From a virus, in the IMG/VR virus record IMGVR_UViG_3300009314_000089, positions 1 to 23,299 of that record: a stretch of 23,299 nucleotides of DNA; one strand, written 5' to 3'. The position numbers and the translations under genes were made by a program. This document shows positions 1,960 through 18,929 of the stretch, piece after piece. Below the pieces are notes generated by a model, which searched no databases, had not been told where the DNA came from, and worked only from the letters and a program-made list of their open reading frames with translations. Position 1 is the stretch's first letter. The number at the start of each line of letters is the position of its first letter.

Positions 1960-2042
1960 TGCGGGGTAGACTGGAGATGGCACCAGCGAAGTCTCATAAA
2001 CTTTAACCGAAAGGAACGCGGGTTCGAGCCCCGCCCCCGCTA
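1960..2042 (+). tRNA. tRNA with CAT anticodon (Met, fMet or Ile2), atypical
   Basis: A tRNA-like fold of 83 bases. The acceptor stem pairs GCGGGG (1961-1966) with CCCCGC (2035-2040). The T arm is GCGGG/CCCGC (2018-2022, 2030-2034) around loop TTCGAGC. The anticodon arm is GAAGT/ACTTT (1988-1992, 2000-2004) with loop CTCATAA and anticodon CAT at 1995-1997. CCA is not encoded. The oddities are three: the D stem CTGG/CCAG (1971-1974, 1983-1986) sits four bases from the acceptor rather than two; the variable region is 13 bases (2005-2017) and can form CC-GAAA-GG; and the outermost pair would be T1960-T2041. It could be a tRNA-Ile reading ATA after lysidine modification, a tRNA-Met, or a decaying copy. 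Confidence 0.7.
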
Positions 2043-2064
2043 CTTTTGACACTTTTGTACTTTC

Positions 2065-2081
2065 TGTATACTTATATATGG
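2065..2081 (+). promoter_or_regulatory. Promoter-like motif before the GIY-YIG gene
   Basis: The sequence TGTATACTTATATATGG resembles the motif found before the genes at 11935 and 13547 (shared core ATACTTATA). It lies between the tRNA and a GGAGG ribosome binding site (2080-2084) for the ATG at 2091. Function is inferred only from similarity of sequence and position. Confidence 0.25.
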
Positions 2082-2090
2082 AGGTACAAA

Positions 2091-2579
2091 ATGAGAAAAG
2101 AAAGAAAATATCATTACATTTATAAGATAACAAATGCAATAAATGAAGAATTTTATATTGGCATGCATTCAACTAAGGAATTAAGACAAGATAAATTATG
2201 TATGAATCTGACAAATGGAGGTGGTGGTGGATTATATAATGAAGAACATGCAAAAAAATTCCATATTGCTGGTGGTGTGGCCAACTTACCATTATTACAA
2301 GAAGGATATAAGATACATGCAGAAAAACTGAAGTCTGATTCCGAATACAGAAAAATATATTGTGATAAACTTAAAGGAAATCAAAACTGGTTAGGTAAAA
2401 AACATAAAGAAGAATCTAAGAAAAAAATAGGCTTAGCAAATTCCATAAACCAAAAAGGAGAAAAAAATTCTCAATATGGAACACACTGGATTACAAATGG
2501 TGTAGAAAATAAAAAAATTAAAAATAATGAAAAGCTACCAGATGGATACAATTTTGGTAGAAAATTCAATTATGTCTAA
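2091..2579 (+). pseudogene. Degenerate GIY-YIG homing endonuclease, nuclease domain internally deleted
   Basis: The N terminus carries the start of a GIY-YIG nuclease: Y9-I-Y11 (HYIYKITN) and Y22-I-G24 (FYIGMHST). Related phage enzymes then have about 50 residues holding the catalytic Arg and Glu (MGSG..., ...KKYG..F...). Here the sequence jumps directly to LCMNLTNGGGGG (residues 36-47), normally found after that block. The C-terminal part keeps the DNA-binding repeats typical of such proteins (GKKHKEESKKKIG, WITNGVENKKI, LPDGYNFGRK). The frame is intact but the nuclease core is missing, so it is probably inactive for cleavage while possibly still binding DNA. Start ATG 2091 has GGAGG seven bases upstream; a TTG further upstream lies next to the tRNA and is not used here. 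Its position beside a tRNA fits homing mobility. Confidence 0.75.
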
Positions 2580-3150: not shown

Positions 3151-3366
3151 ATGAAAAAGAAATCGCCGATATGTGATAATTTTAATATGAAAAGTAAGCA
3201 TTTTATTAAGATCAATAAAATTATTGAATCATGTAAAACAATAGAGCATATATATCAGGCTGATAATTGCATTGATACACTAGATTCAATATTTGATGTT
3301 AAATTAAGTAATTTAGGATATTTGCGTACAAAATTACATAAAAAACTGTCTTTAATTTCAAAATAA
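3151..3366 (+). CDS. Hypothetical protein, 71 aa
   Basis: A small, basic, mostly helical protein (start MKKKSPICDNFN, end HKKLSLISK) with three cysteines but no recognisable metal-binding spacing. It begins six bases after the glucosaminidase stop and its stop overlaps the next ATG (TAATG at 3364-3368), so it fits translational coupling within an operon. No family is recognised and there is no clear ribosome binding site. Confidence 0.55.
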   Translation: MKKKSPICDNFNMKSKHFIKINKIIESCKTIEHIYQADNCIDTLDSIFDVKLSNLGYLRTKLHKKLSLISK

Positions 3367-3806
3367 TGAATAGAGGCTATTTTGGCATTGGTATTATTGC
3401 TGGTAAAACACCAGAAAATCTTGGAATGCTTTTCCGATCAGCAAAAGCGTTTGAAGCTAATTTTATATTTACGATTGGATGTCGGTATAAGCGACAATCA
3501 TCTGATACTATAAATTCGTCGAAACATATACCATTGTTTGAATTTAGAGACTTTGAAGATTTCAAGAATCATATACCAAAAGATGCTAAGCTGGTTGGAA
3601 TTGAAGAAGGTAGTTTTCATGAAATCAGATCTTTTGTTCATCCAGAACGAGCAATATATATTCTTGGAGCAGAGGATACTGGCATACCACCAGAAATTAT
3701 ATCAAAGTGTGATATGTGCGTAAGCATACCAACAATGCATTGCTTAAATGTATCAGTTGCTGGATCTATTTTAATGTTTGACCGAAAAACCAAAACAAAA
3801 AATTAA
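3366..3806 (+). CDS. SpoU/TrmH-family RNA 2'-O-methyltransferase (SPOUT fold)
   Basis: All three SpoU motifs are visible in this 146-residue protein. Motif 1 is N18-L-G-M-L-F-R24-S-A, where the Arg is the expected catalytic/RNA-contact residue. Motif 2 is L100-G-A-E-D-T-G-I-P108. Motif 3 is C126-L-N128-V-S-V-A-G-S-I. Motifs 2 and 3 form the knot that binds S-adenosylmethionine. The length matches the minimal TrmL-type enzymes that methylate tRNA wobble nucleosides and lack an added RNA-binding domain. Motif 3 usually reads S-L-N; the Cys at that position is a small deviation. RNA target (phage tRNA, host tRNA or rRNA) is unknown. It is coupled to the upstream gene by TAATG. Confidence 0.9.
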   Translation: MNRGYFGIGIIAGKTPENLGMLFRSAKAFEANFIFTIGCRYKRQSSDTINSSKHIPLFEFRDFEDFKNHIPKDAKLVGIEEGSFHEIRSFVHPERAIYILGAEDTGIPPEIISKCDMCVSIPTMHCLNVSVAGSILMFDRKTKTKN

Positions 3807-5007: not shown

Positions 5008-5970
5008 ATGAACACATTATATTACATAAGATTCTATCTATTACTCTGGTTTACAAACCATTTTAATAAAGAAAAAATAAATCCTATTGAAAAAGATGAT
5101 TGGGTTTTAATATTTCATGATGAGTTCAACGACAATAAATTAGATGAAAAAAAATGGACTACTAACGAACATTGGGGCTATATAAAACATGGTGTTGCTT
5201 GGTTAAAAGAACAAGTATCATTCAAAAATAAAACTTGTTATTTAACTACTGATAAATATGTCGGTCCTAATCCTGTAAAGGATCTAGATGGAACTATCAA
5301 ATATATAGATAATGTTTCTGGAATGCTTTGTTCAAACCCAACTTTATATTGTAAATATGGCTATTATGAAATAAGATGTAAACCACCACCAAAAGGAATA
5401 AAATACTGGCCAGCGTTTTGGTTTGAAAGTAAAAAATCATGGCCACCAGAAATTGATGTATTTGAATTAATGCAACCTGGAAATAGCAGACGATTAATAA
5501 TGACATATCATTGGTTGGATGATGAAAAAAATAAAGACCAAATTACAGCACTAATTATCCAATGCTACACAAAAAAATTAATACCATATGTTCCAAAAAA
5601 TATAGATGATGTTATACAATTATTGAGAATAGATTGGACTCAAGCAAAACAAGAATATATTGATAGTATTAATAAGTTAAGAATTCATAAAAGTTATCAT
5701 GTAGGATTTAGTGGATATAATTGGAGTAAAAAATATCATACATTTGCTGTTAATTGGGAACCAAAGAAAATAACTTGGTATATTGATAATATTGTAGTAT
5801 TTAGATTAAAAGAAAATCAATGGATAAATTTTGGCAAACGCATTAAATTACCAAAATATCCAATGTATGCAATAATTAACAATGCCACTACTCCTGGAAA
5901 TGTATTTGAGCCGGATGAAATCCCAATGCCAATGCCAGTAAGTTATTTTAGAGCATATGAAAAAGAATAA
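5008..5970 (+). CDS. Glycoside hydrolase family 16-like enzyme
   Basis: A GH16-type (beta-jellyroll) glycan hydrolase of 320 residues. The signature E148-I-D150-V-F-E153 matches the family pattern ExDxxE, with E148 the expected nucleophile and E153 the acid/base. Supporting blocks are the early strand LIFHDEFND...W, the YGYYEIRCKPP strand, WPAFWFE, and the late HTFAVNWEPKKITWYIDN block typical of laminarinase/carrageenase-like members. Members cut internal beta-1,3 or beta-1,4 links in glucans or galactans. Residues 4-15 are hydrophobic but lie after only one or two polar residues, so export is uncertain. A strong AAAGGAGG eight bases before the ATG fixes the start. In a phage it may degrade host capsule or slime; virion attachment is not evident. 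Confidence 0.87.
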   Translation: MNTLYYIRFYLLLWFTNHFNKEKINPIEKDDWVLIFHDEFNDNKLDEKKWTTNEHWGYIKHGVAWLKEQVSFKNKTCYLTTDKYVGPNPVKDLDGTIKYIDNVSGMLCSNPTLYCKYGYYEIRCKPPPKGIKYWPAFWFESKKSWPPEIDVFELMQPGNSRRLIMTYHWLDDEKNKDQITALIIQCYTKKLIPYVPKNIDDVIQLLRIDWTQAKQEYIDSINKLRIHKSYHVGFSGYNWSKKYHTFAVNWEPKKITWYIDNIVVFRLKENQWINFGKRIKLPKYPMYAIINNATTPGNVFEPDEIPMPMPVSYFRAYEKE

Positions 5971-11934: not shown

Positions 11935-12357
11935 ATGGACAAAGATACCGAAATATTTAGAGGAAAAAATTTTAGCGATATACTAAAGGATATATACGAG
12001 AATACTAAAAAGAAAGAAAGACAGATTATACAATTAATATCTGATCTAAAACCATTAGTATCCAATGTCAAGGACGCTATGTTGGTTGTGCCACTTATAA
12101 GTGATTACTTGGAGATAGCAGTTAAAAACGACGAACATCTTGTAAAAATGGCAGCGATCGTACAACGAATGATGAATCGTACCAAGTTTGAAGGAGATGA
12201 TAATATGGTAATAACTGACGATGAAAGAGAAGAACTTATGCGTGAATACGAGGAACTTGAAAAGGAAAATAAAGTTATAAAAGAAGAGAAATCAAAGTTA
12301 CAAGATGATATAGTTACATCAAAAAATGATGTTGCTGGAGATACAAATGAACAATGA
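11935..12357 (+). CDS. Conserved phage coiled-coil protein, 140 aa
   Basis: The N-terminal two thirds (FSDILKDIYENTKKKERQII, LKPLV, VVPLISDYLEIAVKNDEHLVKMAAIVQRM) match a family I recognise in T4-like phages near baseplate and sigma genes, with no known function. Residues 100-130 form a Glu/Lys-rich coiled coil (REYEELEKENKVIKEEKSKL). It probably oligomerises. A baseplate-assembly or chaperone role would fit its position before the spike gene, but this is inference. Its end overlaps the next gene by 11 bases. Confidence 0.7.
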   Translation: MDKDTEIFRGKNFSDILKDIYENTKKKERQIIQLISDLKPLVSNVKDAMLVVPLISDYLEIAVKNDEHLVKMAAIVQRMMNRTKFEGDDNMVITDDEREELMREYEELEKENKVIKEEKSKLQDDIVTSKNDVAGDTNEQ

Positions 12358-13510
12358 TAATATTATTAAATTTGGTGAAGTAGTTAATATAAATTTCAAG
12401 GACGACGATCCAGAGATCATATATAGAGTTAAAATTAAAATATATGATTTTGAAACAATAAGCACTGGTGATATAATCAGTGCTTTACCATATAGTAATA
12501 ACACAATACATATACCACTTATAGGTGAAATCGTATCTATCCAAAGAGCTCCCTGTGCTACCGCTGCAGGAAATACAAAAATATTCAAATATTATTATTC
12601 ACAACCAATAAGCATACACAATAATAATCATTGTAATGCATTGCCAAAACTTGCAAAAATAAATGTGAGTGATGATACGTCAGATTATTCCGATCAACAA
12701 GCCGGTGTAAGCGAAACAAAGGCACAGAAACCATTCAAACCAGGAATTGGATTCAAAGAAAATAAGGACATTAAAAACCTACAATTATTCGAAGGCGATT
12801 ATTTGATAGACGGCCGTTGGGGCAATTCTATAAGATTTGGTAGCACAATCATTGACGGAGATTATTCGGTAGAACCAAGTTGGGAAGAAAGCAGTAATGC
12901 AAAAAACGGATCACCCATACTAATAATCCGAAATGGGCAGATAGACAATCCACCATCTGGCATAAATAATTTTATAGTTGAAGATGTGAACGATGATAAA
13001 TCATCTATATATCTTACTTCTGGACAATTAATACCACTTGATCCAACCAGCGATATATTTGATTCATATGATAGTAAACCAACATCATTCAAGAATTATG
13101 ATGAAGAACAAGTAATCATTAATTCAAATAGAGCGGTCATATCAGCTAAGAAAGATTCTGTATTTCTTAATTCAAGTAAATCAATATCCATATCAACAAA
13201 GGGGTTGATCAACCTGGATTCAGGCGACAAATATGTTGCTAATTGTCCCGAGATGTATTTTGGTGGAAAAGAAGCTACAGAACCACTTTTATTTGGGAAT
13301 AAGACAGATGATTGGTTGAATGAGTTACTTGATATTTTAAATGACATATTATTGAAATTATCTACTCACATACACCCAACCGGTGTAGGTCCATCAGGTC
13401 CGCCATTACCACCAGAATTATTAGATTTTTCAAATCAAATACCACTTGACGTTTCAACAATACGGCAGAAGATAATTGAACTAAAAAGTAAGAGGAATTT
13501 TACACTCTAA
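12347..13510 (+). CDS. Baseplate central spike protein, gp5/gpV-like
   Basis: ATG 12347 is chosen because GGAG (12337-12340) lies six bases before it; an ATG at 12326 has no such site. The 387-residue protein begins with a beta-rich, OB-fold-like segment (residues 5-90: FGEVVNINF, YRVKIKIYDF, HIPLIGEIVSIQR). A middle region holds FEGDYLIDGRWGNSIRFGST, and residues 250-310 show short repeated strands (VIINSNRAVISAKKDSVFLN, SISISTKGLINLDSG) typical of a triple beta-helix spike. The C-terminal THIHPTGVGPSGPPLPPE segment is common in phage spike/hub proteins. It would sit at the tip of the tail tube and pierce the outer membrane. No lysozyme domain is present, unlike T4 gp5. Confidence 0.8.
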   Translation: MNNDNIIKFGEVVNINFKDDDPEIIYRVKIKIYDFETISTGDIISALPYSNNTIHIPLIGEIVSIQRAPCATAAGNTKIFKYYYSQPISIHNNNHCNALPKLAKINVSDDTSDYSDQQAGVSETKAQKPFKPGIGFKENKDIKNLQLFEGDYLIDGRWGNSIRFGSTIIDGDYSVEPSWEESSNAKNGSPILIIRNGQIDNPPSGINNFIVEDVNDDKSSIYLTSGQLIPLDPTSDIFDSYDSKPTSFKNYDEEQVIINSNRAVISAKKDSVFLNSSKSISISTKGLINLDSGDKYVANCPEMYFGGKEATEPLLFGNKTDDWLNELLDILNDILLKLSTHIHPTGVGPSGPPLPPELLDFSNQIPLDVSTIRQKIIELKSKRNFTL

Positions 13511-14464: not shown

Positions 14465-16345
14465 ATGGCAAACATCAAGAAATCCGTACCATTTCTTAAT
14501 AAAGATTTCGGCAATTTCCGAAAAAACTTAATAGATTTCACTAGGAATTATTTTCCTAATACTGTATCAGATTTCTCTGAAAGTTCTCCTGGCATGATGG
14601 CACTCGAATTGTGTGCTTACGTTGGTGATGTATTGTCGTTCTATGTTGATGAACAATTAAAGGAATCACTAATCCAACACGCTGAAGAAGAAGGAAACAT
14701 ATATACATTATCCAACGCATTCGGTTATAAAGCAAAAAATACAATACCAGCAACAACTACACTTGATGTATTTCAAATAGTGCCAGTAATTGGAGCAGGA
14801 ACAGCGGCAGCGCCTGATTATACTTATTGTATGATTGTTGATGATGGAATGACCATTCATTCATCAATAGACGATGATGTAAAATTTCGTACAACTGAAG
14901 TTGTTGATTTTAGTTATTCCAGCTCGCTTGATCCTACTTACGTAACGGTTTATCAAATAAATGATTCAACAAATATTCCAGATTATTATTTATTAAAGAA
15001 GCGAGTTAAAGCATCATCTGGTGAAATCAAAACCAAAACATATGCATTCGATACTCCAAAAATATATGACAAAATATTACTTGATGATGATGATGTTACT
15101 GAAATACTAGATGTAACAGATTCTGATGGAAATATATGGTACGAAGTACCATTCTTAGCACAAGATACAATCTTCAAATCAATTAGAAACATCCAACAAA
15201 ATGACCCAGATTTATATGAATATCGTGAAGCAGCTCCATATCTACTTAAACTAGTAAAAACATCAAGACGATTTGTAAAGAGGTTAAGGAGTGATCACAA
15301 GTTCGAGCTTCAGTTTGGAGCAGGAATATCCAGTGATGTAGATGAAGAAATCATCCCAACACCAGATAAAATTGGATCAACCTTAGCTGGAATATACAAA
15401 AATGTTGATACATCAATTGATCCATCTAACTTTCTATATACAAGATCGTATGGTCTCGCGCCATCAAACACTACATTAACCATAAGGTACATGGTTGGCA
15501 AGGGATTAAGCGATAATGTATCTTCAAACGATTTAACTAATATTGATTCAAAAACTACGACATTCGTTGGTAGTGGTTTGGATGGTTCGATGGAGATACT
15601 TGTAGGAAATTCACTGGCATGCACAAATCCAGGCGCAGCTGTTGGTGGTGCTAGCCGCGAGTCGATAGAGGATATCCGAAATAATACAATATCACTATTC
15701 GCAGCACAAAATCGGGCAATCACAGCAGATGACTATATAGTTCGTACATATACATTACCACCAAAATACGGATCAATCGCGAAGGCTTATATAGTGCAGG
15801 ATGACCAATTGGATCCACAAAATATAGATCAACGGATACCAAATCCTCTTGCTCTAAATCTCTATGTTCTTGGTTATGACAAAGACAAAAAATTAACACA
15901 ACTAAACTCAGCAGTAAAAGAGAACTTGAAGACTTACTTATCTCAATTTCGTATGTTAACTGATGCGGTCAATATAAAAGATGCATTCATTATTAATATA
16001 GGAATCGATTTTGAAATTATAACGTTGCCTGGATATAACTCTAATGAAGTGGTGTTTAGATGTATTGATCAACTAAGAAAACTAATGAACATCGAAAAAT
16101 GGCAAATCAATCAACCAATTATCAAATCACAACTATACACAGAATTAGATAAGATAGAGGGAGTTCAAACTGTAGTTAATATTAAGATTACTAATTTATG
16201 GGAGACGGACTATGGATATTCCGGAAATAGGTATGATATTAAAGCGGCAACGGAAAACGGAATTTGCTACCCCTCACGTGACCTAAGTATTTTCGAATGT
16301 CGCTTCCCGAATATGGACCTGAGAGGGAGATCGGTTAATTACTAA
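14465..16345 (+). CDS. Baseplate wedge protein, gp6/J-like
   Basis: A 626-residue protein whose N terminus (FLNKDFGNFRKNLIDFTRNYFPN, DFSESSPGMMALELCAYVGDVLSFYVDEQ) matches the T4 gp6/Baseplate_J family. Residues 410-435 (ESIEDIRNNTISLFAAQNRAITADDY) and the following YGSIAKAYIVQDD match the conserved J domain. In the baseplate two gp6 copies form the core ring that triggers sheath contraction. The C terminus (DLSIFECRFPNMDLRGRS) is also typical. The gp25-gp6 order and 5-base spacing match contractile-tail operons. The frame is intact. Confidence 0.93.
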   Translation: MANIKKSVPFLNKDFGNFRKNLIDFTRNYFPNTVSDFSESSPGMMALELCAYVGDVLSFYVDEQLKESLIQHAEEEGNIYTLSNAFGYKAKNTIPATTTLDVFQIVPVIGAGTAAAPDYTYCMIVDDGMTIHSSIDDDVKFRTTEVVDFSYSSSLDPTYVTVYQINDSTNIPDYYLLKKRVKASSGEIKTKTYAFDTPKIYDKILLDDDDVTEILDVTDSDGNIWYEVPFLAQDTIFKSIRNIQQNDPDLYEYREAAPYLLKLVKTSRRFVKRLRSDHKFELQFGAGISSDVDEEIIPTPDKIGSTLAGIYKNVDTSIDPSNFLYTRSYGLAPSNTTLTIRYMVGKGLSDNVSSNDLTNIDSKTTTFVGSGLDGSMEILVGNSLACTNPGAAVGGASRESIEDIRNNTISLFAAQNRAITADDYIVRTYTLPPKYGSIAKAYIVQDDQLDPQNIDQRIPNPLALNLYVLGYDKDKKLTQLNSAVKENLKTYLSQFRMLTDAVNIKDAFIINIGIDFEIITLPGYNSNEVVFRCIDQLRKLMNIEKWQINQPIIKSQLYTELDKIEGVQTVVNIKITNLWETDYGYSGNRYDIKAATENGICYPSRDLSIFECRFPNMDLRGRSVNY

Positions 16346-16355
16346 GGAATAAACC

Positions 16356-16913
16356 ATGGAAAAATGTAGTCTTTGTAATACAGAATTTAAGAATAAATAC
16401 TCTTTAGGAAATCATTTAAGATATGGGTGCACTAATAGTAGTGAATATCAAAGTTCTGTTAGAATAAAAAAAATAGTTTATATTGAGTGTAAAGAATGTC
16501 ATATCATATTTGAAGTTCCATATGCAAAAAGGAGAAGAAAATTTTGTTCTAATAAGTGTCATGGAATATGGATAACCGGAGATAATAATCCATGCAAAAA
16601 GAAAGGTAGATATATAAACTGTATTATTTGTGGTAAAGAATTCTATGTTACAGATAGGAATATTGATAGAAAATATTGTTCAATGAAATGTGTGTGGGAG
16701 GGTAATAAGGGCGACAACAATCCAGCAAAAAATCCCGAGGTTGGCAAAAAAATAAGCGAATGGAAAAAAGAAAACCACCATTGTGCTGGCAAAACATTTG
16801 AGGAATGTTATGGTGTCGAAAAAGCTAGAGAAATAAATTTATATGGAAAAATATTAACTCAAGCCGAAATCACACAAAATTACCAAGCAATGAAAAGCCG
16901 TTATGGAAAATGA
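16356..16913 (+). CDS. Zinc-finger/NUMOD homing-endonuclease remnant
   Basis: Three zinc-binding units are visible: C4-x2-C7...H20-x4-C25, C45-x2-C48...C64-x3-C68 and C89-x2-C92...C108-x3-C112. They are followed by GDNNPAKNPEVGKKISEW (NUMOD3-like) and GKTFEECYGVEKAREIN, both DNA-binding modules of freestanding phage homing endonucleases. No HNH, GIY-YIG or LAGLIDADG catalytic block is present in the 185 residues, so it is probably a DNA-binding remnant or a divergent nuclease. It lies just after gp6, inside the structural block, where phage homing genes often insert. Its stop overlaps the next ATG by 4 bases. Confidence 0.7.
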   Translation: MEKCSLCNTEFKNKYSLGNHLRYGCTNSSEYQSSVRIKKIVYIECKECHIIFEVPYAKRRRKFCSNKCHGIWITGDNNPCKKKGRYINCIICGKEFYVTDRNIDRKYCSMKCVWEGNKGDNNPAKNPEVGKKISEWKKENHHCAGKTFEECYGVEKAREINLYGKILTQAEITQNYQAMKSRYGK

Positions 16914-17380
16914 TTAAACTAAAAGAAATACTAAATGAATCAAAACAGGTTGGAATTATATATCACTATACTAACAAACGAGGATTAGATGGCATATTAA
17001 AAACAAATATAATAAAAGCATCAAAAGAAAAATATATGGGCAACACTATGTATTATGTATCGTTCACTAGAAATAAAAATTTCCACAAGAAGGGAATGAA
17101 ATTTGATGTTAAAATAGAATATAGAATTACAATTGATGGAAATAAATTATCAAACAATTATAAGATATATCCATTTGCTTATATACCAGGATGGAATTAT
17201 ACAGATAATTGGGACTATGATTGGTTGGATGATGAACCCGAAAAAGTTAAAAGAGATTTCTTAAATGCAACAGGTGATTATGATGAACAAGAGGAGCGAG
17301 TTTCATTAAAGAGCGCATCCGACAAAATAACGAACATTAAAAATTATATAATAAAAGTTGATAAAGTTGCTGATTTATAA
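16910..17380 (+). CDS. Putative ADP-ribosyltransferase-fold protein with capsid-targeting-like leader
   Basis: After a leader (MIKLKEILNE) the 156-residue protein reads I-I-Y18-H19-Y-T21, GLDGILKTNII, Y48-Y-V-S51-F-T-R54 and later E128-E-R-V131. A His-bearing first strand, an IL..G/N helix, an S-F-T-R strand and a late Glu are the pattern of DarT- and Tpt1-like ART folds; I also recall similar uncharacterised phage proteins. Activity is unproven and the catalytic Glu assignment is tentative. The leader closely matches that of the next gene and resembles T4 capsid-targeting sequences, with N9-E10 a possible protease cleavage site. It overlaps the upstream remnant by 4 bases and the Nudix gene by one base. 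Confidence 0.55.
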   Translation: MIKLKEILNESKQVGIIYHYTNKRGLDGILKTNIIKASKEKYMGNTMYYVSFTRNKNFHKKGMKFDVKIEYRITIDGNKLSNNYKIYPFAYIPGWNYTDNWDYDWLDDEPEKVKRDFLNATGDYDEQEERVSLKSASDKITNIKNYIIKVDKVADL

Positions 17381-17838
17381 TGATTAAACTAAAAAACATA
17401 CTATTAGAAGAACGTGAAGAACGTTCCGCTGGAATCATACCATACTATAATAATAATGGTGAAATCCAATACTTATTACTAAAGAATAAGAACATCTGGG
17501 GCTTTCCAAAAGGACATGTTGAAAAAGGAGAAAGTGAAATCAAAGCAGCAAAAAGAGAAACAAGTGAAGAAACTGGATTACATAATATTGAAGTACACTC
17601 TAACTGGAAAGCAACCACTAATTATATTATTAAATGGGACTTTGAAAATAATAGAAAGTTTGAAAAACCCAAACAAAAAGAGGTTACTTACTTTCTTGGA
17701 AAGACTAATTCCAAAAAGGTAAAATTATCACATGAACATGACGCTTATAAGTGGTTAACATATGAAAACGCAATGAACACAATCAGTTTTAATAAAAAAT
17801 TAATTAAAAGAGCAAACGAATATATAGTAAGGAAATAA
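17380..17838 (+). CDS. Nudix hydrolase with capsid-targeting-like leader
   Basis: The Nudix box is complete at residues 45-67: G45-x5-E51-x7-R59-E60-T-S-E63-E64-T-G66-L67 (GHVEKGE...RETSEETGL). WGFPKG just before it is typical of diadenosine polyphosphate (Ap4A)-type members, so hydrolysis of NpnN, NADH, ADP-ribose or mRNA caps are the main options. The N-terminal leader MIKLKNILLEE closely matches the preceding gene's leader and precedes the domain by only ~8 residues. At 152 residues it is a single-domain enzyme. It is coupled to the ART-like gene by a one-base overlap, which suggests linked function such as making and processing nucleotide modifications. Confidence 0.92.
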   Translation: MIKLKNILLEEREERSAGIIPYYNNNGEIQYLLLKNKNIWGFPKGHVEKGESEIKAAKRETSEETGLHNIEVHSNWKATTNYIIKWDFENNRKFEKPKQKEVTYFLGKTNSKKVKLSHEHDAYKWLTYENAMNTISFNKKLIKRANEYIVRK

Positions 17839-17843
17839 CAGAA

Positions 17844-18929
17844 ATGCAGTATAACATCTATTCTGAAAAAGACGCAACTATTTATGAGAGTTCTGCTTCA
17901 ATGAACACTGGAGTGGATGAAATATTAGAGGTTGATAAATTAGTAACAACATCCGAAAGAAATTATAATTCCAGAATATTAATGAAGTTCGACCTAACAG
18001 CAATAAGTGCGTCTATCGTTGCTGGTGATATTACTAGTCCAAAATTCTACTTAAATTTAAGTGTTACGGATGCATACGAACTTCCAGCAGAGCACACACT
18101 ATATATTTATCCAATTTCTGGATCATGGAATATGGGAATCGGCAAATATGACTACGACCCAGCAGTTGATGAAGGTGTTAGTTGGAAATATCGTCTAGGA
18201 TATACTGATGCAACAAAATGGGCAACAAGTAGTTTTGCAACAACTGAAACTGGATCATACTCAGTTGTAGAGGGTGGTGGTAATTGGTATACTGGCTCTT
18301 ATGCCTCTCAATCATATACTTTTGAATCAAATGATATGCGAGCAGATGTAACTGATGTGGTAAACTCTTGGTTGGATGGAACTTATACAAACCACGGATT
18401 CATAATTAAACGTCTGGATTCTGATGAAGCAAGTACTACTGAATTTGGTAGTATTAAATACTTTTCAACTGAAACGCATACAATATATGTGCCAAAACTT
18501 GAGACTGTTTGGGATGACTCTTCCTGGGCAACTGGCAGTTTAACAGAATTAACTGACGAGGATATTTCTATCTATACAAAAGGACTGAAACAAGAATACA
18601 TTGAAGATTCAAAAATCAAAGTAAGAGTATATGGAAGAGCAAAATATCCAACAAGGACATATTCTACTTCATCTAACTATTCTACGGTAAAATATTTACC
18701 ATCCTCTTCCTATTATGAAGTGCGAGATGCTTATACCGAGGAAGTAATAGTTCCATTTGATACAAGTTATACGAAAATAAGTTGTGATACAACTGGAAAC
18801 TATTTAAGATTCTGGACAGACGGACTACAAGTTAGCAGATTCTATAAATTTGTTTTCCGAGTTGATCGAGAAGGTGGAGATCGTATTGATTATTATGATG
18901 ATGATTACGTATTTAAGATAATTAAATAA
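17844..18929 (+). CDS. DNRLRE-like virion structural protein
   Basis: The N terminus (YSEKDATIYESSASMNTGVDEILEV) and SRILMKFDL match DNRLRE-type beta-sandwich proteins. Further blocks are LYIYPISGSWNMGIGKY, GGGNWYTGS, RADVTDVVNSWLDGTYTNHG, KYFSTETHTIYVPKLE and a C-terminal YLRFWTDGLQVSRFYKF. I recognise this whole series in virion proteins of tailed phages. It is entirely beta-rich with many Ser/Thr/Tyr and no catalytic motif, so it is probably an adhesin or fibre-like component next to the baseplate. It starts six bases after the Nudix stop, resuming the structural block. Confidence 0.75.
   Translation: MQYNIYSEKDATIYESSASMNTGVDEILEVDKLVTTSERNYNSRILMKFDLTAISASIVAGDITSPKFYLNLSVTDAYELPAEHTLYIYPISGSWNMGIGKYDYDPAVDEGVSWKYRLGYTDATKWATSSFATTETGSYSVVEGGGNWYTGSYASQSYTFESNDMRADVTDVVNSWLDGTYTNHGFIIKRLDSDEASTTEFGSIKYFSTETHTIYVPKLETVWDDSSWATGSLTELTDEDISIYTKGLKQEYIEDSKIKVRVYGRAKYPTRTYSTSSNYSTVKYLPSSSYYEVRDAYTEEVIVPFDTSYTKISCDTTGNYLRFWTDGLQVSRFYKFVFRVDREGGDRIDYYDDDYVFKIIK

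What the first reader, a model, noticed from the sequence alone, without database searches (positions are those of the whole stretch)
16910..17838. ART-like and Nudix enzymes share a capsid-targeting-like leader: possible injected effector pair
Two adjacent genes of unrelated fold begin with near-identical leaders, MIKLKEILNE and MIKLKNILLE; the first 15 bases of the genes are identical. In T4, internal head proteins and the injected ADP-ribosyltransferase Alt carry a ~10-residue capsid-targeting sequence ending in a Glu cleaved by the gp21 prohead protease (MKTYQEFIAE in an internal protein). The leaders here have the same length, charge, hydrophobic spacing and terminal hydrophobic-x-Glu. 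That one of the pair looks ART-like and the other is Nudix makes a capsid-delivered NAD/nucleotide-modifying module plausible.
Basis: partly seen in the sequence, partly recalled or inferred. Interest (0 to 1): 0.8.

Follow-up and report, generated by a model that had tools for sequence, protein, structure and literature searches.

The report
Capsid-cargo tags on phage enzymes
Two neighbouring enzyme genes of a T4-like phage carry the same short, probably removable front tag that many related phage genes also carry and that looks like a signal for the phage's head-building protease, which suggests that the enzymes are packed inside the virus head and injected into the bacterium with the DNA.

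Summary
Adjacent ART-fold (16910-17380) and Nudix (17380-17838) genes start MIKLKEILNE|S and MIKLKNILLE|E, in the register of T4 capsid-targeting sequences (hydrophobic at 4, 7, 8; Glu 10). The leader is widespread and exchangeable: a degenerate MIKLxxLLxE scan hit 125 proteins in 63 unrelated clusters. The strongest evidence is the ART family: in all 72 distinct ART start regions examined, the ART is preceded by [LIVMF]-x-E, then A/G/S in 71, whether after a short leader or inside a multi-enzyme polyprotein. This is the gp21 prohead-protease motif (L/I-x-E) and matches the predicted major-capsid cleavage sites of the same phages. An S77 (gp21-type) protease is in 9/9 ART-bearing records over 150 kb. 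The window itself is a 23-kb fragment without head genes. HNH-like, ART and Nudix genes form a 1.5-kb insertion between two baseplate-region genes that are 5-62 bp apart in 80 relatives. Most likely both enzymes are packaged, trimmed after Glu10 and injected, as T4 internal proteins are. Packaging, cleavage and activity are inferred, not shown. New variant of a known kind; new are the scale of the tagging and polyproteins apparently cut at the same motif.

The parts
16356..16913 (+). HNH/treble-clef zinc-finger protein, first gene of the inserted cassette; its stop overlaps the ART start
   Evidence: PHROG HNH endonuclease phrog_1271 E=1.5e-7; a homologous start follows gp6 in L056
16910..16939 (+). 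leader of the ART gene, MIKLKEILNE, predicted prohead-protease cut after Glu10 (ILNE|SKQVG)
   Evidence: P1 Glu invariant, [LIVMF]xE followed by A/G/S in the ART family; residues 1-11 have pLDDT below 50 in the model
16940..17380 (+). ART-fold domain (Y18-H19-Y20-T21, S51-x-T53, E126/E128/E129 invariant in 14 sequences); ends at ...VDKVADL, where relatives continue into an LxE junction
   Evidence: Pfam Tox-ART-HYD1 2.8e-5; Tpt1/KptA Z 10.2; alignment A2; C-terminal junctions
17380..17409 (+). leader of the Nudix gene, MIKLKNILLE, predicted cut after Glu10 (ILLE|EREER)
   Evidence: same register as the T4 CTS; leader-tagged Nudix relatives in L154 and L141
17410..17838 (+). Nudix hydrolase with intact Nudix box GHVEKGESEIKAAKRETSEETGL; closest solved relatives are Ap4A hydrolases
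   Evidence: PF00293 1.9e-17; Ap4A hydrolase 3u53 E=2.2e-14
14465..16345 (+). gp6-like baseplate wedge protein, left border of the insertion
   Evidence: PHROG baseplate wedge 3e-18; 405 relatives among viral stretches
17844..18929 (+). conserved protein of the baseplate region (function unknown), right border of the insertion
   Evidence: 5-62 bp from gp6 in 80 relatives, 1502 bp only in the window

Best explanation
The 10-residue leader is a capsid-targeting and prohead-protease recognition tag. During head assembly it brings the ART and the Nudix enzyme into the scaffolding core. The gp21-type (S77) protease then cuts after Glu10, leaving mature ART starting SKQVG and mature Nudix starting EREER inside the head, and both are ejected into the host with the DNA. 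There the ART probably ADP-ribosylates a host protein or nucleic acid using NAD+, and the Nudix enzyme cleaves an NDP-X or dinucleotide compound (ADP-ribose, Ap4A or NAD-like). Shown by sequence: the leader and its register, the invariant cleavage motif, the polyprotein junctions, the ART fold, the Nudix box, the protease in relatives, and the cassette insertion among baseplate genes. Inferred: packaging, cleavage, injection, enzymatic activity, substrates.
For: 1) T4 register: CTS residues 4 and 7 direct targeting, 8 and 10 processing, and gp21 cuts after L/I-X-E (PMC9026906); the window leaders have L4, I7, L8, E10. T4 gp24, MAKINELLRE|S, loses exactly 10 residues. 2) ART family: P1 Glu 72/72, P3 L/I/F/M/V 72/72, P1' A/G/S 71/72, although these residues were not in the scan patterns. 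3) The same junction precedes the ART in standalone proteins with different leaders (MIKLIDLLNE|A, MKRFKEFLNE|S, MKSFKQYFLE|A) and inside polyproteins; the two ART ends are the only [LIVM]xE[GSA] matches in the L007 and L012 polyproteins. 4) Other modules (P-loop kinase 28/28, NMNAT-like 15/15, HAD 9/9, CLRIA 15/15, LHKWF 6/6, GSGRR 6/6) have [LIVMF]xE within 16 residues upstream; gp25 control 3/30. 5) Major capsid proteins of these phages have AKQ-[LI]-[LIV]-x-E, mostly followed by A, at the position of the T4 gp23 cut. 6) S77 in 9/9 ART-bearing records over 150 kb, in 5/6 leader-bearing records over 150 kb (the sixth also lacks gp23), and in isolates Mel-JY01 and immuto. 7) Leader on 125 proteins in 63 clusters, including Pfam ART-PolyVal and MPTase-PolyVal.
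Against: No virion proteomics for these phages was found. The window is a fragment without head genes, so its own protease is not seen. The Nudix P1' residue is Glu, not A/G/S. The looser motif h-x-x-h-h-x-E also fits ordinary N-terminal helices, for example the baseplate coiled protein MKxxxLVSLIKEVVKQEV. In Mel-JY01 and immuto the exact register is used by few ORFs (4 of 218 and 4 of 170). How often S77 occurs in large phages without the leader was not measured.
Confidence: 0.82

Rival explanations
1. The leader is only an amphipathic start helix with another role (protein-protein docking, membrane association, solubility) or a translation-start signal, and the enzymes act in the cytoplasm after late expression.
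For: Short hydrophobic helices are common at N-termini and some motif matches are clearly ordinary helices. The two window leaders share 15 identical bases.
Against: A start signal cannot explain LxE followed by A/G/S deep inside polyproteins or at ART C-terminal ends. Codon use in the leader varies synonymously. The Glu and the small P1' residue are more constant than the helix upstream.
Confidence: 0.1
2. The junctions are cut, but by another peptidase (the zincin-like metallopeptidase domains present in some polyproteins, as proposed for polyvalent proteins, or a host protease after injection) rather than by S77.
For: Several polyproteins contain a metallopeptidase-like HEMIHH module, and the polyvalent-protein paper proposes release by such domains (PMC5512222).
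Against: The motif equals the published gp21 motif and the predicted major-capsid sites of the same phages. Standalone tagged genes such as the window pair have no peptidase domain.
Confidence: 0.12
3. ART and Nudix form a cytoplasmic toxin-antitoxin-like or superinfection-exclusion pair carried by a homing cassette, unrelated to virions.
For: Overlapping start and stop codons next to an HNH-like gene, inserted at a site that is empty in 80 relatives.
Against: Location among baseplate genes, the cleavable-looking leader on both, and dozens of unrelated leader-tagged genes elsewhere.
Confidence: 0.06

Closest known systems
T4 capsid-targeting sequences of the internal proteins and the gp24 propeptide, cut by gp21
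   Same: N-terminal leader of about 10 residues, hydrophobic residues at 4/7/8, Glu10, L/I-x-E motif, S77 protease in related genomes
   Different: Here the tag is on a large, exchangeable set of enzymes rather than three small internal proteins, and the same motif separates domains of polyproteins; packaging not shown
T4 Alt, injected ADP-ribosyltransferase
   Same: ART fold, gene beside baseplate genes, N-terminal propeptide removed by gp21; Alt is also cut at its C-terminus (PMC9026906)
   Different: The window ART is 156 aa, matches Tox-ART-HYD1 with Tpt1/KptA as nearest fold; no link to the R-S-E Alt/VIP2 clade was seen
Polyvalent proteins (PMC5512222) and virion-packaged NAD/ADPr enzymes (PMC9503650)
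   Same: Multi-enzyme phage polypeptides with ART, metallopeptidase and nucleotide enzymes predicted to be injected; ART and Nudix proteins predicted to be packaged in myoviruses
   Different: In the passages read, those predictions rest on gene context and fusion to head proteins, and release is ascribed to embedded metallopeptidases; here a tag and cut motif of the prohead-protease type is seen
phiKZ/SPN3US head ejection proteins and the P1 DarB targeting signal
   Same: N-terminal targeting propeptides; Glu-directed prohead protease in the giant phages
   Different: SPN3US propeptides are mostly over 100 residues with an A-x-E motif (S-x-E in phiKZ); the DarB signal lies within 30 residues; no such family of short swapped leaders described there
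Ap4A hydrolases (NUDT2-like Nudix) and T4 NudE
   Same: Nudix box and overall Nudix domain
   Different: Carries the leader; substrate unknown

Membership tests
T4-type capsid-targeting sequence (CTS) | N-terminal leader of about 10 residues with hydrophobic residues at 4 and 7 (targeting) and 8 plus Glu10 (processing) | tested here: met
   MIKLKEILNE, MIKLKNILLE; register statistics; residue roles from PMC9026906
T4-type capsid-targeting sequence (CTS) | L/I-x-E motif of the gp21-type protease at the end of the leader (sequence only) | tested here: met
   LNE and LLE in the window; ART family P1 Glu 72/72, P1' A/G/S 71/72
T4-type capsid-targeting sequence (CTS) | S77 prohead protease encoded by the same genome | tested here: inconclusive
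   Not in the 23-kb fragment, which lacks head genes; present in 9/9 ART-bearing records over 150 kb
T4-type capsid-targeting sequence (CTS) | Tagged protein found in prohead and virion, leader removed by the protease | not testable with these tools
   Needs virion mass spectrometry or an in vitro cleavage assay
ADP-ribosyltransferase superfamily (Tox-ART-HYD1) | ART fold and family profile match | tested here: met
   Pfam 25.1 bits at cut-off 25; Z 10.2 to Tpt1, 7.4 to DarT; model pLDDT 75.7
ADP-ribosyltransferase superfamily (Tox-ART-HYD1) | NAD+-dependent ADP-ribosyl transfer | not testable with these tools
   Candidate residues H19, Y20, S51, T53, E126/E128/E129 invariant in 14 sequences
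T4 Alt/VIP2 clade | Sequence or fold membership in the R-S-E Alt clade | tested here: inconclusive
   No Alt-type chain listed among the neighbours; the invariant motif is Y-H-Y-T rather than Arg-based
Nudix hydrolase | Nudix box GX5EX7REUXEEXGU | tested here: met
   GHVEKGESEIKAAKRETSEETGL; PF00293 1.9e-17
Polyvalent protein | Two or more disparate domains in one polypeptide | tested here: not met
   The window ART and Nudix are separate single-domain genes; ART relatives do lie in multi-domain proteins

The most novel reading that the evidence does not exclude
Many environmental T4-superfamily phages use a general capsid-cargo code: a swappable leader of about 10 residues, and the same L-x-E junction inside polyproteins, by which dozens of unrelated NAD, nucleotide and protein-modifying enzymes are loaded into the head, cut apart by the prohead protease and injected as a cocktail.
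Probability: 0.6. Interest if true: 0.87.

Novelty: new variant of a known kind. Interest (0 to 1): 0.76.

Why it matters
If true, an effector injected by these phages could be recognised from its first ten residues, which would turn many hypothetical proteins into predicted virion cargo. It would also give a mechanism (the head-maturation protease) for separating the domains of multi-enzyme phage polyproteins. Both predictions are directly testable by virion mass spectrometry of existing isolates.

Tried and rejected
A single-protein search with the Nudix found no close viral relative; two leader-tagged Nudix relatives came from other scans. My first DNA pattern, ATGATTAAATTAAAA, was absent from the window (codon 4 is CTA). 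Fecal-phage Nudix hits (L248-L250) have long unrelated N-terminal parts and no leader. The broad motif h-x-x-h-h-x-E was too loose (it picks up helical baseplate proteins) and was replaced by the fixed T4 register. PDB sequence search with the ART gave nothing significant; no Alt-type chain appeared in the fold lists. Mel-JY01 ART-looking tagged proteins (L018:10276, 12056, 29976) have no Pfam match and are not counted as ARTs. Large leader records without S77 looked like counter-examples, but they also lack gp23, so their head region is probably missing or diverged. No paper of the held library contains the string MIKLKDLL, and the 15 papers since 2008 that use the term capsid targeting sequence do not include the polyvalent-protein or NAD-ADPr surveys.

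Full report
Check of the observation. The two genes, their coordinates and leaders are as stated. ART-like 16910-17380 starts MIKLKEILNESKQVG and Nudix 17380-17838 starts MIKLKNILLEEREER; the first 15 bases are identical and each start codon overlaps the preceding stop codon. In the fixed register of the T4 capsid-targeting sequence (hydrophobic 4, 7, 8; Glu 10) only these two of 32 called window ORFs match, expected 0.07.

What the genes are. The first is an ART-fold protein: Pfam Tox-ART-HYD1 just over its cut-off, and a model with mean pLDDT 75.7 whose best structural neighbours are Tpt1/KptA 2'-phosphotransferases (Z about 10 over 90-96 residues), then Scabin and DarT at Z 7-8. Foldseek alone gave no match below E 0.001. 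The leader (residues 1-11) is one of the low-confidence parts. The second is a Nudix hydrolase with a complete Nudix box, nearest to Ap4A hydrolases among solved structures.

The leader looks like a cleavage tag. An alignment-based viral scan returned 80 ART loci. Over all held loci, 72 distinct ART start regions were compared: the residue two before the KQVG motif is Glu in 72 of 72, the position two before that Glu is L, I, F, M or V in all, and the residue after the Glu is A, G or S in 71. These residues were not part of the scan patterns (KQVGx[LI]YHY and DG[DN]KLS...). The family occurs as standalone proteins with leaders such as MIKLIDLLNE|AKQVG, MKRFKEFLNE|SKQVG and MKSFKQYFLE|AKQVG, and embedded in long multi-enzyme proteins. 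The junction is constant while the sequence upstream changes. It is the published motif of T4 gp21 (L/I-X-E), and the leader register matches the residues shown in T4 IPIII to direct targeting (4, 7) and processing (8, 10) (PMC9026906). T4 gp24, MAKINELLRE|S, loses exactly its first 10 residues (PMC9958956).

Polyproteins. In relatives the ART sits in proteins that also hold an NMNAT-like domain and further modules (GSGRRLYTDE domain, metallopeptidase-like domain, HAD nucleotidase). In L007 and L012 the only two [LIVM]xE[GSA] matches of the polyprotein are the two ends of the ART. An LxE follows the ART in 11 of 12 embedded copies, and the window ART ends at the matching Leu. Six other modules show [LIVMF]xE within 16 residues upstream in 79 of 79 distinct cases, against 3 of 30 for a baseplate (gp25) control. 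Several modules occur both standalone with a leader and embedded, so cargo appears to be shuffled between the two formats (inference).

Protease and capsid. Several major capsid proteins of leader-bearing contigs have propeptides that begin leader-like (MSTIQSLLE|S, MNVQQLLE|S), and nearly all have AKQ-[LI]-[LIV]-x-E, mostly followed by A, at the position of the T4 gp23 cut. S77 proteases are found in both isolates, in 9 of 9 ART-bearing records above 150 kb and in 5 of 6 leader-bearing records above 150 kb; the exception also lacks gp23. The window has no head genes and no S77, so its own protease cannot be judged.

How widespread. In ART-selected contigs the register is used by 24 of 306 ORFs (expected 0.8), in 552 ORFs of baseplate-selected contigs by none. 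In Mel-JY01 and immuto it is modest (4 of 218 and 4 of 170). L154 carries four tagged genes in a row, the last a Nudix; L141 carries a protein with leader-like start, Nudix and a metallopeptidase-like HEIKH motif.

The cassette. In 80 relatives the gp6-like gene and the next gene are 5-62 bp apart; in the window they are 1502 bp apart, holding an HNH-like gene, the ART and the Nudix. One other contig, L056, has a similar HNH-like start at this place. T4 alt also lies beside baseplate genes (PMC5512222).

Mechanism and confidence. Most likely the leader brings both enzymes into the core, S77 cuts after Glu10, and the mature enzymes are ejected with the DNA (0.82 for this account of the tag). 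Enzymatic targets are open: an ADP-ribosylated host factor and a cleaved nucleotide compound fit PMC9503650, which inferred from gene context that ART and Nudix proteins are packaged in myoviruses. For the Nudix, a Glu at P1' and few relatives make the case weaker.

Novelty. Capsid-targeting leaders, injected ARTs and polyvalent proteins are known separately. What appears new is one tag and cut motif uniting them across many environmental T4-superfamily phages, and the prohead protease as the likely processor of the polyproteins. I found no paper in the held library stating this, but that library is not complete.

Noticed in passing
window 16346-17843: 1.5-kb insertion (HNH-like, ART, Nudix) at a site that is empty in 80 relatives; L056 has a similar HNH-like start after gp6 at its contig end, so the site may be a recurrent landing point.
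   Followed up: partly
L154:175-2013: Four consecutive genes each starting MIKLKD[LI]LxE, the last a Nudix hydrolase: a tandem array of tagged genes.
   Followed up: partly
L018:10276-10926, 12056-12718 and 29976-30464 (Microcystis phage Mel-JY01): Leader-like starts on proteins continuing DRVWHLT/DRVWHVT or VYHYT, reminiscent of ART starts but without Pfam matches.
   Followed up: no
L001:8637-9437, L165, L187 and others: Recurrent leader-tagged P-loop kinases (zeta-toxin/AAA_33-like), in L001 directly upstream of the NMNAT-ART polyprotein.
   Followed up: partly
L017:23870-24970 and L020:21627-22868: The probable scaffold/core proteins end in MKKLAGIVK or WQKLAGIIK, similar to a second leader type RMQKLAGIIxE on other proteins (for example L020:7676); possibly a shared core-binding motif.
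   Followed up: no
window 5008-5970: Glycosyl hydrolase family 16 protein in a phage (Pfam 1.9e-17).
   Followed up: no
window 3366-3806: SpoU-type RNA methyltransferase (Pfam 3.5e-22).
   Followed up: no
window 1960-2579: tRNA-Met (CAT) followed by a gene whose N-terminus looks GIY-YIG-like by eye, with a NUMOD3 motif.
   Followed up: no
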